Assembly (NCBI GenBank): GCA_033297075.1
Contig: MU858046.1
Coordinates: 186,001-250,000, forward strand
DNA length: 64,000 nucleotides
Origin: Rhypophila decipiens
Lineage: Eukaryota > Ascomycota > Sordariomycetes > Sordariales > Naviculisporaceae
Direction: 5' to 3'
Shown: positions 41,143 through 46,736 of the stretch, piece by piece
Layout of the letters: every line of letters begins with the position of its first letter
Numbering within the stretch: the stretch's first letter is position 1
Position numbers and translations under genes: made by a program
The notes under the pieces: model-generated
Databases searched by the model: none
Told to the model about the DNA's origin: nothing
What the model saw: only the letters and a program-made list of their open reading frames with translations

Positions 41143-44100
41143 ATCTTCTTTTGAGTCTGTTTGTTTGGGCTGGTTGGAAAGAAATGGAAAGAAAGGTCCG
41201 GATAACATCATGACATGGTTGGAGACTCGGAGGTTTAATTTTGCAAGGTTTTTGGACACTGGGTACAAGGCCATAAATGGTATGGAAAAGGAACGGTTGG
41301 GTAATTAATACCATGGTGTTGCGGATATTGATCTTGTTGTTTTGTATATAGATACCCCTTTTGTTCTATTTGTTTGGACTGTTATAATATGAGGGTGTAA
41401 GAGACACTTGGTTACTACCGTAGGCAGCTAGCACGGGAAACGAATCTAGCTGCATCATTCTTCAGTAAATCTTGCTTTTGAGCTCCCTGAACAAAGTGGT
41501 GAACGCAGAGTTGGGCGAGCTCTGGATATCACGTATGGCGGATTTTCCTACTAATTCTTGCTAAAAAGGCGACCTCAAATGAAGCTGGGGTCTTGAGGTT
41601 AAATGTGAGCGAGGTCGCCTTCACTACTATATGTCGGTGTTTGGATATCCCTTTCTCGCTTCTTCCAAGCTTTAGTACTAGAATCAGTAGGAAACAGTGC
41701 GGTTGCATCTTCCGGTTGACGGAATTTCTAGGCCAAATAGTTTCTACATTACAGATACGTCTGCTGGTAGGAGTTGACCTGATATCCATCGACACCAGCC
41801 CGGATGTTGGCGGGAAGAAGCCGGATGGGACAGGACGAGTTCGGGATTGAAGTGAACAATACGACGGCAACGGCGGTGCGATCTTGTATCGCATTGGCTA
41901 TTTCAATGTCATGTGTGCTGGGCAGTGCGCAGTTGTGCAGTCCAGGCACGATGCTGATATAAAGCCGGATATGGCAGCTGGATCGTGAGCCTCGTCTCTC
42001 AAGGGAACCCCCACGTCAGATTCGGTCAAAGAGGTCACAAGCACAAGCCTTGTTGCCTTGAAATCTGACCCAAAGGTGATGATTCGATGAAAGTGAAGCC
42101 GACAAGCCTGAGAGCCAACCGGCAGGCATGCCAAATTCCGGTCCATCCCGGTAGACGACAAGAACACGGAGCGCAAGACGGGACAGCGATGGTGCCTGCC
42201 AGGTGCGTCTCAGCCTGGAACGAGGCTTGAACTAGGTGAACACAGTGGTGAAACCATGAAGCGGGAGACACCGGCGGTGGAGAACTTGTCCTCCTCGTAG
42301 ATCCGGCCGAACACGGCTCTCGTCGGCATCTCGTGCCTCCCGGCGAGTCCCGAGCCGCATCCGGGACCATCACCAACGAAACTTCGACTCACGATCGATC
42401 GAAAAGAAGAGGTGTGGATCCAATAAACCGGGAATCCTGCAGCACAATTGGTTTTGAGACTCGAGAGAGGAACTTCCAGAGGCTATCCGGCATGCAGGAA
42501 ATCCACAGGTTGAATCAGGACTTTGCATAGATGAGGACCACCTACTTCCGCGGCAATTGCAACGTGCGTACGGATATTGATACTAAGGAGTCCCGCAGCC
42601 TCCGGGCGTACCTGGTTTCTTTATCCCAGCATCCGGCAACAAATGCCTCTTTCTTGAATTCTTTGTTCCTTTCCTCTCAAAACTCGAGGCTGGGCAAGGT
42701 CGTCCCTCCAGAGCAATGCGGGTCAGACTTAATTACCCATCCAATAGTCCGTACGGAGGGACTTATTCCACAGTGCTTCACATGTTGCGTATCTCCCAGG
42801 TGGAGGCGCAATGCATTATATTTTTCCACGCTTTTCGAAGCACATGCAGGTCGTCCAAAGCCGGCAGCATTATTCCAGCGGAAAGGATCCAAATTCGATG
42901 CTGATTAATACCATATCCCACAGCAAGGCTTGAAGCAACTGCGCTGCACAGACCTCATGTAACCTCACGGACTTGAACATGAATTGAGAATGAGTCACAA
43001 AACTCAATTGCACAGTTTCCCGCTTCTTTATTGCATCCTTTGCTCGGTTTGCAAATCCAATTGAGCATTTTTATTCGACAGAACATGTCGATCACATTCC
43101 TTTGCCCTTTCCCGACTTTTCCAAGGTTGCGGTCCGAGATTGTGGAGTACACTGGAGACAGATCTTATCCACTTGGTGGGACAGTAGCGTCGTTTTCAAG
43201 TTTCTTGGTTTATTTTTTTTAGGAATTGCCTCATCAATTATGGGCTTTGGAGGGGGGCTCTTCCGGCTTGGAAGATTGTGGGATAAAAAAGTGCGAATTC
43301 CTTCAACCTCATCCTGATATTGACAGAAGCGGCGTCCCAGGCAGACCGATGATAGGGCTGGCCAAACAGAATCCGACGAATATCGGATCGTCTGCTGTGT
43401 GACAGGAGTTCAAGCATCATGACCATCCACCTGGGCCCATGTGTTTCGAACTCCTTCCCTTTTTCCCCTGTGGTGATCGGATTCCTCGTGTGGGTGAATT
43501 CGATCCAGGACAGGTATCCTCAGCAGGAGCTTACGAGTTACGAGCCCAGGAAGGGAACATCCCAGGCACGCGGACCGCAAGCCCCCATCAGCGAGGCGGG
43601 TCAATCCAACATTTGGTTACACACACACGGCTGGTCGGCAACGGCATTCACTGGTCTGGCATCCAGCCATCCCACTGTGTTTCGCAACCAAGTTGCGTGT
43701 CCCCAGAGTCCTGGCAACTGGTCCTGACGACTGAGGTTGCGAAGCCCGCTGCGTGTTCATCACATCTCTCTTCAACAGGCGACAGAGTCTAGGGCGCGAT
43801 TCGTAGTCCTATCCATCCCCCGTCAATGTGCCTCCTCTTGAGCGGTGTCCTGCATGTCGCGTCCCATCTGTAAAGTCGTAGACAAATTACCGTAGACTAC
43901 TGTACGGAGTAGCATTTTGACATTTGGACGTTTGGCAACGCCCTTGTGCGCGACATGGCAGGAGGCCTGGTCGCCGGCGCCAATTTGGGTTCGCTCCAAT
44001 TCGCAGGTCGCATCTGATTGGTCGACCACTTGAGGGGCTGACACCAAGTGGGGCTGTGCCTGGCATCCCTGCACATCCGAGGGAGAGCAGTACAGAAAAG

Positions 44101-44491
44101 TGAGAGTTTCACAAAGTTTGGGGTTTGCAGCGAACTTCATTTTTTGTGTGCAAAGCCTCTCTGAGCGTGTGACTCACACTTGCCGGATTTGGCTGGCCGT
44201 GCCTTGGGAGCAAATCAAACGGCCTGTCGCTCAAAATCCCGCCGTAGGTTTAGTGGTCCTAGCGGTCCTAGTGGAGCCGAGCAGGTGGGAAACTGCCCTG
44301 GAGCCTGTGGTTTGTGCTGCGGGGCGCACGCACCAACTCGAAAGCCATTCGGTCGCATCCTTTTTGGCTTTTGCTGCCTGATAAAACGGCCGTCCTCGCC
44401 CACTTTTTCCCGCTCACCTCTTCTTCTTTTCCTTCTTCAACCCAACCATTCTCCAACAAACGTACAAAAGCAACCCAAGGCATCCATCAAG
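41143..44491. other. Intergenic, 3' flank of membrane-protein gene and CPC1 promoter
   Basis: No coding frame is supported. The right part is the upstream region of CPC1, with a TGACTCA element at 44170-44176, a GATAAAA sequence near 44380, and a CT-rich tract from about 44400 to 44450 that looks like a fungal transcription start region. Confidence 0.6.
44170..44176. promoter_or_regulatory. TGACTCA element, candidate CPC1/Gcn4 site
   Basis: TGACTCA is the consensus binding site of Gcn4/CPC1 homodimers. It lies about 320 bp upstream of uORF1 and roughly 230 bp upstream of the CT-rich presumed start region. This position suits autoregulation, which is known for related fungal cpcA genes. Whether it is bound here is inferred from sequence only. 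Confidence 0.55.
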
Positions 44492-44500
44492 ATGCGTTAA
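44492..44500 (+). promoter_or_regulatory. CPC1 uORF1 (Met-Arg-stop)
   Basis: The reading is ATG CGT TAA with A at -3. A minimal first uORF is the hallmark of GCN4-type leaders, where ribosomes finish uORF1, stay on the mRNA and resume scanning. It is in the same frame as uORF2 and 226 nt upstream of it. Confidence 0.85.
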
Positions 44501-44549
44501 AGCACTCCCAGGCCCTCGTGTCCCCTCGACTTCAGAACAAGTCGCCACC

Positions 44550-45197
44550 ATTTCTTCCTCAAAGAATAACGTTCTCCCCACTCAATTTTCAACCTCAGTT
44601 CTTCCTGAAAAGGTCGATCTGAACTACAGCTTCCAGCTTCCCAGCTCGCGCTTCAGTTCTTCCAACACCGCCACCATTCACGGCCAAGACTTCCCAGTCT
44701 TCACCACGGATTCAAATCAGTCAACATGGCTTCCCTCCAGTTCACCGAGCCTGCCGGCACACTCCGCGCAACAGCAACAATTGCAGCACCTCAACTTGCC
44801 CAACAATCAGCAGGACTTCGTTCTGTTCGATCAGCCCATCAAGCGTCAACCTAACCGCTCTGTTTCTCAACCATCCGCCAACGGACGTGTAAACCAGACC
44901 AACCTGCTACAGCATCGTACCCAGCAGCTTTTCCCAACTAGTCAACTACAACAGCAGCAGGTTACTTCTCCGTCTGTCCAGCACCAACGGGTTTCCAGCA
45001 TCATCCAGGCCACAGGGCATAATACAACTTCTTCGGCTTTCACCAATCGGTTCAGCTCTTCTGCGCAGAACCAGCATCAGTTCTACGCTTCGTCCGCTCC
45101 CTCGTCAACAGTCGCTTTGAACCTGCAGAACAACCGGCCCGTTCGCCCGCCTGTTCCTTTGTTCACCCAAAGCACTGGTAATATACCACAAGGCAAA
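44550..45197 (+). CDS. Candidate non-AUG N-terminal extension of CPC1
   Basis: The CPC1 frame is open from 44385 with no in-frame AUG before 45198. Two in-frame AUU codons, at 44550 and 44676, each lie directly after GCCACC, an ideal initiation context. Starting at 44550 would give a 471-residue protein. The encoded stretch looks like real protein: Gln/Ser/Asn-rich with short hydrophobic-acidic motifs such as DLNYSFQLP, QDFPVF and QQDFVLFDQP, similar in style to activation domains. Published work on Neurospora cpc-1 and its Pezizomycotina orthologues describes conserved, stop-free, non-AUG-initiated extensions like this one. Which codons are used here is inferred. Confidence 0.65.
44726..44854 (+). 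promoter_or_regulatory. CPC1 uORF2 (42 codons)
   Basis: This AUG has A at -3 and G at +4, a strong context. The frame runs 42 codons to TAA and begins MASLQFTEPAG. Neurospora cpc-1 has a uORF2 of nearly the same length (41 codons). In GCN4-type control this uORF blocks reinitiation at the main start in fed cells and is bypassed when ternary complex is scarce. It overlaps, in another frame, the open CPC1 frame, so these bases could be translated twice. Confidence 0.82.
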
Positions 45198-45965
45198 ATG
45201 AATCTCCAAGGTAAGACGCTGCTCTTGAACCCACCAGCGTCTGGTTTCAATCGCTTACATGAATTGAAACATCAAGACCTAAGCGACTTGGAGGACTTCG
45301 TTGCCTTCGAGGGTGGCGCCTCCACGGCGTATTCTTCGCCCGCCATGCCATCCGTGTTTGACCTGAGCAGCAGTGTTACCAGCAACATGGGCACTGTCTC
45401 TCCCCAGGATCTGCTGATCCAGGATCCGTTCATGTCAGCACCCAACTCCACCGCCCTCACGGCGTTGACTTCCCCTTCGATATATAACGAGTCGCCCGAC
45501 TTTGGCGACAGTTTTGATGTCTCTCCCAACTTCGGAAGCAGCGATTTTGATGGTGGTAATGACGCTTGGTTCCCGCTTTTCCCTCCGTCGAACCCTCAGC
45601 CGGAACTTCCCAAGGCCTCGCCTGTGGAGAAGTCGCCCGCTGAGAAATCTGATGATCTCGAGGTTGCGGAACGCTCCCCGGGCCATCAGCGGCGCAAGTC
45701 GGGCAGCTCTCCTCCTACTGGTCGTCATTCTTCTATCTCTGGTGTCAATGCGCGCCATCGCAACAAGCCTCTTCCTCCTATCGTGGTTGAGGACCCGAAC
45801 GACACTGTTGCCATGAAGCGTGCTCGCAACACCTTGGCCGCTCGCAAGTCCCGCGAGCGCAAGGCCCAGAAATTTGAGGAACTGGAGGAGAAGATCGACA
45901 AGCTCACCGCCGAGCGTGATTATTGGAGAAACATGGCTTTGACACTAGGAGCAAAAAAAGAGTGA
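45198..45965 (+). CDS. cpc-1: CPC1/GCN4 bZIP transcription activator
   Basis: This is the activator of the general amino-acid (cross-pathway) control response, binding TGACTCA sites upstream of biosynthetic genes. The first in-frame AUG (context CAAAATGA) gives 255 residues, close to known CpcA/CPC1 lengths. The C-terminal bZIP is clear: basic region with AMKRARNTLAARKSRERK and a short leucine-zipper-like coil ending ALTLGAKKE. Mid-protein acidic/aromatic motifs (SDLEDFVAFEGG, DAWFPLFPP) fit activation domains. A possible in-frame 66-nt intron at 45211-45276 starts 13 bases after the AUG. If spliced, the AUG form is 233 residues beginning MNLQDLSDLEDF. The upstream frame is also open and may be translated from non-AUG codons. 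Expression is expected to be controlled mainly at translation through uORF1 and uORF2. Confidence 0.93.
   Translation: MNLQGKTLLLNPPASGFNRLHELKHQDLSDLEDFVAFEGGASTAYSSPAMPSVFDLSSSVTSNMGTVSPQDLLIQDPFMSAPNSTALTALTSPSIYNESPDFGDSFDVSPNFGSSDFDGGNDAWFPLFPPSNPQPELPKASPVEKSPAEKSDDLEVAERSPGHQRRKSGSSPPTGRHSSISGVNARHRNKPLPPIVVEDPNDTVAMKRARNTLAARKSRERKAQKFEELEEKIDKLTAERDYWRNMALTLGAKKE
45211..45276 (+). other. Candidate in-frame 66-nt intron in CPC1
   Basis: It begins GTAAGA after CAAG, has a branch-like CGCTTACAT, and ends CATCAAG. The length is divisible by three and free of stops, so retention adds 22 residues. The AAG acceptor is less common than CAG or TAG, which lowers confidence compared with the TPR case. 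Confidence 0.45.

Positions 45966-46677: not shown

Positions 46678-46736
<59 letters not shown>

What the first reader, a model, noticed from the sequence alone, without database searches (positions are those of the whole stretch)
44385..45197. CPC1 frame open upstream of its AUG, with two AUU codons in ideal context
The sequence shows the bZIP frame uninterrupted from 44385 to 45965, yet the first in-frame AUG is at 45198. In-frame AUU codons at 44550 and 44676 are each preceded by GCCACC. The encoded extension has protein-like, activation-domain-like composition. Conserved non-AUG-initiated CPC1 extensions are known in Neurospora and relatives. The specific codons and two matching contexts here look like a clear case in another species, and would give isoforms of up to 471 residues against 255.
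Basis: partly seen in the sequence, partly recalled or inferred. Interest (0 to 1): 0.82.

Follow-up and report, generated by a model that had tools for sequence, protein, structure and literature searches.

The report
Known non-AUG extension of fungal CPC1
A dung fungus carries, in front of the gene for its amino-acid-starvation regulator CPC1, the same protein-coding extension with non-standard start codons that was described in 2017 for its Neurospora relatives, so the feature is real but expected.

Summary
The CPC1 frame is open from 44385 to 45965, its first AUG is at 45198, and AUU codons at 44550 and 44676 each follow GCCACC. The window encodes, letter for letter, the annotated CPC1 of Rhypophila decipiens.

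The feature is already published. Ivanov et al. 2017 (PMC5487733) found it in 100 of 100 Pezizomycotina and saw initiation at four near-cognate codons (NCC5-8) in vitro. Here CUG 44619, AUU 44676 and ACG 44706 correspond to NCC6, NCC7 and NCC8.

Corrections and additions:
- The leader has GCN4-type uORF1 (44492-44500) and uORF2 (44726-44854).
- Openness alone is weak evidence (405 of 20,000 simulations); conservation in homologues is the strong evidence.
- The upstream AUG exon annotated in R. decipiens looks like an artefact.
- A 66-nt, stop-free, 3n intron (45211-45276) follows codon 4 of the main ORF, so spliced products would be 233 and up to 449 residues.

One modest extra: Ile at 44550 is kept in 60 of 73 homologues with a residue there, wider than published for NCC5. 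No translation data for this species were available.

The parts
44170..44176 (+). TGACTCA, a CPRE / Gcn4-type site upstream of the gene (possible autoregulation)
   Evidence: 4 TGA[CG]TCA matches in the whole window; another lies at 42991; that CPC-1 binds TGA(C/G)TCA is from PMC7554675, passages; autoregulation here is inferred
44380..44386 (+). GATAAAA, TATA-like element at the 5' edge of the open frame; mRNA start probably shortly downstream
   Evidence: read; inference
44492..44500 (+). uORF1: ATG CGT TAA, offset +2 to the CPC1 frame
   Evidence: two uORFs in all 100 homologues of PMC5487733
44550..44552 (+). AUU in context GCCACC; candidate start, in a position resembling NCC5 (assignment inferred); isoform 449 aa spliced / 471 aa unspliced
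   Evidence: Ile in 60 of 73 homologues with a residue there
44619..44621 (+). CUG corresponding to NCC6 (VDLN motif); isoform 426 / 448 aa
   Evidence: Leu in 108 of 112; CUG/UUG in 77 of 100 species per PMC5487733
44676..44678 (+). AUU in context GCCACC corresponding to NCC7; isoform 407 / 429 aa
   Evidence: Ile in 114 of 118; AUU/AUC/AUA in 74 of 100 species per PMC5487733
44706..44708 (+). ACG with A at -3 and G at +4 corresponding to NCC8, the deepest-conserved start; isoform 397 / 419 aa
   Evidence: Thr in 118 of 118; paper quotes GTCTTC just 5' of NCC8 and the window reads GTCTTCACCACGGAT; ACG in 98 of 100 species
44550..45197 (+). N-terminal extension of CPC1, 216 codons
44726..44854 (+). 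uORF2: 42 codons plus stop, ATG in context GTCAAC, -1 frame, overlapping the extension
   Evidence: all uORF2s of Pezizomycotina analysed are in the -1 frame per PMC5487733
45198..45965 (+). main CPC1 ORF from the first AUG; 255 aa unspliced, 233 aa spliced
45211..45276 (+). intron-like stretch, 66 nt, GTAAGA...CTTACA...CAAG, in frame and stop-free
   Evidence: removed in the annotated P0003, retained in P0002
45816..45914 (+). bZIP domain (PF07716 / PF00170; residues 423-455 of the 471-aa reading)
   Evidence: nearest solved relatives are GCN4

Best explanation
This is the cpc-1 (GCN4 orthologue) gene of Rhypophila decipiens with the architecture described for Pezizomycotina. uORF1 lets ribosomes resume scanning; uORF2 captures them when amino acids are plentiful and blocks the main AUG. 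A minority of scanning ribosomes start at near-cognate codons between uORF1 and uORF2 (AUU 44550, CUG 44619, AUU 44676, ACG 44706) in the CPC1 frame, read through the overlapping uORF2 region and make CPC1 with about 164-216 extra N-terminal residues, escaping uORF2 control. Shown here: the open frame, the codons, both uORFs, and conservation of the extension as protein. Shown elsewhere (Neurospora crassa): initiation at NCC5-8 in vitro and in-frame footprints in vivo. Inferred: that the same codons are used in this species, and what the extension does.
For: Frame, starts and uORFs. Only one match to CPC1 in the genome searched. Of the 154 homologues that I aligned (the capped lists; one search had 868 hits in all, one search had 739), the residues at the four starts are kept: Ile 44550 in 60 of 73 with a residue there, Leu 44619 in 108 of 112, Ile 44676 in 114 of 118, Thr 44706 in 118 of 118. 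The 10-residue stretches from 44685 and 44805 are 0.89 and 0.90 identical to the window in the 120 homologues, as high as parts of the main ORF. The distance from Thr 44706 to the main Met runs from 131 to 176 codons in 115 homologues without loss of frame. Codon usage from 44550 to 45197 favours this frame (+0.035 against -0.105 and -0.085 bits per codon in the other forward frames; main ORF +0.171). Proteins on 17 short database contigs (of 24 examined) lack the intron and so look cDNA-derived; 8 of these 17 run unbroken from the ACG position and 5 of 17 from the 44550 position. Literature: PMC5487733, abstract and sections 6-8.
Against: No orthologue DNA could be fetched, so no dN/dS or PhyloCSF was done. 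No ribosome profiling or proteome of this species was available. In N. crassa the in vivo reporter output from NCCs was below 1% of that from the main AUG, and toeprints did not show NCCs. The homologue list favours long proteins (length filter of the search), so frame-broken homologues would tend to be missed. The codon signal of the extension is weak, rests on 34 mechanically chosen ORFs, and between 44385 and 44549 another frame scores higher. The CUG 44619 has a poor context by that same model (42.6th percentile).
Confidence: 0.9

Rival explanations
1. An ordinary AUG on an upstream exon supplies the extension: the annotated R. decipiens protein starts at ATG 43419 and splices from 43599 to 44599.
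For: P0003 (493 aa) is exactly that model, and the window encodes it letter for letter.
Against: The intron would be 999 nt with donor GTCAAT and would remove uORF1, which all 100 homologues of PMC5487733 have. The sister strain's protein P0002 has a different start, MFLPEKVDL. Of 39 N-terminal pieces of at least 15 aa taken from 50 NCBI-annotated homologues that I picked, 20 of 741 pairs were similar at E <= 0.01; 12 of those pairs lie within one genus, 8 between genera, and the R. decipiens piece matched none of the other 38. Several pieces look like promoter or uORF1 DNA read in frame (my reading).
Confidence: 0.05
2. The extension is read by +1 (or -2) frameshifting out of uORF2 rather than by near-cognate starts.
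For: uORF2 here is in the -1 frame, the arrangement for which PMC5487733 itself keeps this option open.
Against: In N. crassa, mutating NCC5-8 singly removed specific products in vitro. Protein conservation here reaches upstream of the uORF2 AUG, to 44550-44706, which frameshifting inside uORF2 would not explain.
Confidence: 0.03
3. The leader is conserved as regulatory RNA (uORF1 surroundings, uORF2, start contexts) and the open CPC1 frame is a by-product in T/A-poor sequence.
For: Openness alone happens in 405 of 20,000 simulations. Residues beside the 44550 start are conserved too (Val 46 of 70, Lys 50 of 71, Ser 60 of 73), as a conserved nucleotide element would give.
Against: Length differences across the extension keep frame in the 115 homologues measured. 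PMC5487733 reports dN/dS 0.348 for the extension, significantly below 1, and a positive MLOGD coding signal.
Confidence: 0.02

Closest known systems
Neurospora crassa cpc-1 with NCC1-NCC8 (Ivanov et al. 2017, PMC5487733)
   Same: Two uORFs, the second in the -1 frame; no in-frame stop from the leader into CPC1; CUG, AUU and ACG near-cognate codons in the same order upstream of uORF2; GTCTTC just before the ACG.
   Different: Here uORF1 is also in the -1 (+2) frame, whereas in N. crassa it is in frame 2. Both AUU codons follow GCCACC. An AUU/Ile at the 44550 position is kept much more widely than the paper states for NCC1-5.
Saccharomyces cerevisiae GCN4
   Same: bZIP regulator of amino acid starvation with reinitiation-permitting and inhibitory uORFs.
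   Different: GCN4 lacks the in-frame N-terminal extension (stated in PMC5487733).
Leptosphaeria maculans cpcA (PMC3199737, passages only)
   Same: Two uORFs mapped by 5' RACE; PMC5487733 lists it with the shortest extension, 160 codons.
   Different: Reported intronless, 246 aa; the window has an intron-like stretch near the start of the main ORF.
Mammalian C/EBP alpha and beta
   Same: bZIP isoforms made by alternative, including near-cognate, starts around a short ORF (as discussed in PMC5487733).
   Different: Not orthologous to this arrangement; analogy only.

Membership tests
Pezizomycotina cpc-1 with NCC-initiated extension | bZIP protein orthologous to CPC1 | tested here: met
   Top hits named cross-pathway control protein 1; PF07716/PF00170 above cut-off; single match in the genome searched
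Pezizomycotina cpc-1 with NCC-initiated extension | uORF1 of 3-6 codons and uORF2 of 35-70 codons, both AUG-initiated (stop included) | tested here: met
   uORF1 3 codons, uORF2 43 codons with stop
[quoted passage not shown]
Pezizomycotina cpc-1 with NCC-initiated extension | NCC6 CUG, NCC7 AUU and NCC8 ACG at conserved positions | tested here: met
   44619, 44676, 44706; position matched through protein alignment and one quoted N. crassa hexamer, not by DNA alignment
Pezizomycotina cpc-1 with NCC-initiated extension | Purifying selection on the extension in the CPC1 frame (dN/dS < 1) | tested here: inconclusive
   No orthologue DNA; protein conservation and weak codon usage signal only
Pezizomycotina cpc-1 with NCC-initiated extension | Initiation at the near-cognate codons | not testable with these tools
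   No profiling or proteome data for this species; shown for N. crassa in PMC5487733

The most novel reading that the evidence does not exclude
Two things go beyond the 2017 paper. First, the 5'-most start (AUU 44550) is an Ile codon with A at -3 kept across Sordariomycetes a short distance (roughly 35-56 nt) behind uORF1, so it may be a fourth deeply conserved start. Second, the extension frame and the main ORF both run through a 3n, stop-free intron whose retention adds about 22 residues, so start choice and intron retention together could make up to ten CPC1 forms (five starts, spliced or not).
Probability: 0.25. Interest if true: 0.45.

Novelty: already known. Interest (0 to 1): 0.22.

Why it matters
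It confirms in Rhypophila decipiens (Naviculisporaceae) that the master regulator of amino acid starvation in filamentous ascomycetes has a long, conserved, mostly mis-annotated N-terminus reached from non-AUG codons. In this species the public annotation replaces those starts by an improbable AUG exon, a general hazard for genes of this kind. The function of the extended isoforms remains open in the papers seen.

Tried and rejected
Fetching orthologue DNA for dN/dS: scans of viral contigs and genome contigs found no relative (4 and 34 pattern matches, none confirmed).

Start-context model: built from only 34 mechanically chosen ORFs and weak (A at -3 in only 35%), so its percentiles are indicative. 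They rank ACG 44706 and AUU 44550 high (100.0 and 99.7), AUU 44676 at 97.4, and CUG 44619 low (42.6). The uORF1 AUG, surely a real start, scores only 57.2, which shows the model's limits.

I considered whether conservation of Val-Lys-Ile at the 44550 column is only the stop codon of uORF1 read in frame (GTT AAG). In 20 of 73 homologues a motif that could be uORF1 read in frame lies 11-18 residues further upstream (no chance control was run for that motif), so I rejected it for those. In three Sordariaceae-like proteins (P0072, P0081, P0102) the aligner put Val at the column and the Val-Lys/Asn-Ile Ile two residues later. In the purine-at-minus-3 ranking 44550 is unremarkable (30th of 210 columns); in the A-at-minus-3 ranking it is 6th.

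Chance openness as a full explanation: possible for the frame (2%), not for the protein conservation.

In one search the composition printed for 'mORF after intron' was read in a wrong frame and is not used; one search replaces it.

Structure prediction was not run: the extension is low in structure-forming composition and a model would not bear on initiation.

Full report
What is there. The bZIP frame is open from 44385 to 45965 and its first AUG is at 45198. In-frame near-cognate codons upstream of uORF2 are ATT 44448, ACG 44460, ATT 44550, CTG 44619, ATT 44676 and ACG 44706. Only the last four lie downstream of uORF1. The first two lie in the pyrimidine-rich stretch near the likely mRNA start and are unlikely starts (inference). 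Three ATGs lie between 44300 and 45210: uORF1 at 44492 (ATG CGT TAA), uORF2 at 44726 (42 codons) and the main ATG at 45198.

Which gene and organism. Homologues are cross-pathway control protein 1. The closest are Rhypophila sp. PSN 637 (98% identity over 96%) and R. decipiens (95% over 97%; the shortfall comes from its splicing). The window yields the R. decipiens protein P0003 letter for letter once its two annotated introns are removed. The genome searched holds one match. The bZIP domain matches Pfam above cut-off and the nearest solved chains are GCN4.

Is the extension real protein sequence? Openness alone is weak evidence: 405 of 20,000 simulations. Conservation is strong. I aligned 154 homologues, from two lists each capped at 120 rows (868 hits, 739). 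The encoded residues at the four candidate starts are kept in 60 of 73, 108 of 112, 114 of 118 and 118 of 118 homologues that have a residue there; the main Met is kept in 146 of 152. The stretches QDFPVFTTDS (44685), NQQDFVLFDQ (44805) and HQFYASSAPS (45075) reach 0.89, 0.90 and 0.92 mean identity to the window in the 120 homologues; the bZIP core reaches 1.00. Upstream of 44535 identity falls to 0.07-0.22 and few homologues have residues there, as expected if protein coding starts near 44550. The distance from ACG 44706 to the main Met takes 34 different values from 131 to 176 codons in 115 homologues. A caveat applies: the search admits only proteins of 0.55-1.75 times the query length, so homologues with a broken extension are under-sampled. 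The DNA survey of Ivanov et al. (100 of 100 open) does not rest on that length filter.

Is there a spliced upstream AUG? The public R. decipiens model starts at ATG 43419 and uses an intron 43600-44598 (999 nt, GTCAAT...CAG), which would delete uORF1. PSN 637, 98% identical, is annotated with an unrelated start. Among 39 N-terminal pieces from 50 chosen NCBI models, 20 of 741 pairs resembled each other, 12 of them within a genus, and the R. decipiens piece resembled none. Of 24 homologues on short contigs that I examined, 17 lack the main-ORF intron and so are probably cDNA; 8 of the 17 read unbroken from the ACG position and 5 from the 44550 position into CPC1. The AUG exon is most likely a gene finder's repair.

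What is known. Ivanov et al. 2017 (abstract and sections 6, 7 and 8 read; supplementary figures not seen) reported exactly this: two uORFs and an extension in all 100 Pezizomycotina compared, NCC8 ACG in 98, NCC6 CUG/UUG in 77, NCC7 AUU/AUC/AUA in 74, dN/dS 0.348 for the extension, four NCCs active in vitro, in-frame footprints in vivo, and a rise of the uORF1-uORF2 footprint ratio under 3-aminotriazole from 0.11 to 0.24. They also reported results that temper it: under 1% reporter activity in vivo and no toeprints at NCCs. [quoted passage not shown] A commentary (PMC5676045, first of two parts read) summarises the same. Literature searches for follow-up were made; in the listed titles and abstract openings I saw no later study of the extension's function, and I opened only the papers named here.

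What is slightly new. The paper says NCC1-5 are found only in close relatives of N. crassa. Here the Ile at 44550 is kept in 60 of 73 homologues from many Sordariomycete genera and is preceded in 59 of those 60 by Lys, Asn or Thr, whose codons start with A, the preferred base at -3. In 20 of 73 homologues a motif that could be uORF1 read in frame lies 11-18 residues upstream; in the window the uORF1 stop ends 49 nt before the AUU. All Ile codons are near-cognate. This is an amino-acid-level inference: neighbouring residues are conserved too, so a conserved RNA element or peptide is not excluded, and the equation of 44550 with NCC5 is my inference.

The intron. A 66-nt stretch 45211-45276 (GTAAGA, CTTACA, CAAG) follows the fourth codon of the main ORF, is a multiple of three and has no stop. 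Homologues either lack the matching segment or carry a poorly conserved insert at the same point: 41 of 120 lack it and 79 of 120 carry it. Among 88 NCBI-annotated homologues 36 read through and 52 lack it; 33 of 55 genus-level labels have at least one read-through (P0124, which starts inside the segment, is counted as lacking it). An annotated Neurospora intermedia protein of 270 aa lacks it. If lengths were free, I would expect roughly one in six or seven such introns to be both 3n and stop-free (my estimate, not computed), so the read-through share is suggestive of an optional in-frame intron, but annotation habits could cause it. A search for 'exitron' with 'filamentous fung' found no paper in the library.

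Mechanism. Ribosomes that leak past or resume after uORF1 meet four near-cognate codons before uORF2. Starting there commits them to the CPC1 frame, so they pass the uORF2 AUG and stop while elongating and make an extended CPC1. Starvation, through eIF2alpha phosphorylation, lowers uORF2 use and raises main-AUG use. In N. crassa the near-cognate starts appear to rise as well. All of this is transferred from N. crassa; nothing was measured in this species.

Verdict. A correct and well-spotted observation of an already published, conserved feature; ordinary for its kind, with two small leads.

Noticed in passing
45211-45276: A 66-nt, 3n, stop-free intron-like stretch four codons into the main CPC1 ORF; homologues split between lacking it and reading through it (41 and 79 of 120; 52 and 36 of 88 NCBI-annotated). 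Possible optional in-frame intron (exitron-like).
   Followed up: partly
44550: Ile codon kept in 60 of 73 homologues with A-starting codons before it (59 of 60), a short distance behind uORF1; wider conservation than published for NCC1-5.
   Followed up: partly
43419-43599: The public R. decipiens gene model uses this as a first coding exon joined by a 999-nt intron; probably an annotation artefact.
   Followed up: yes
42991-42997 and 44170-44176: TGAGTCA and TGACTCA, CPC1/Gcn4-type binding sites upstream of the gene, possible autoregulation.
   Followed up: no
46682-46735: A run of TCTG repeats downstream of the gene (seen).
   Followed up: no
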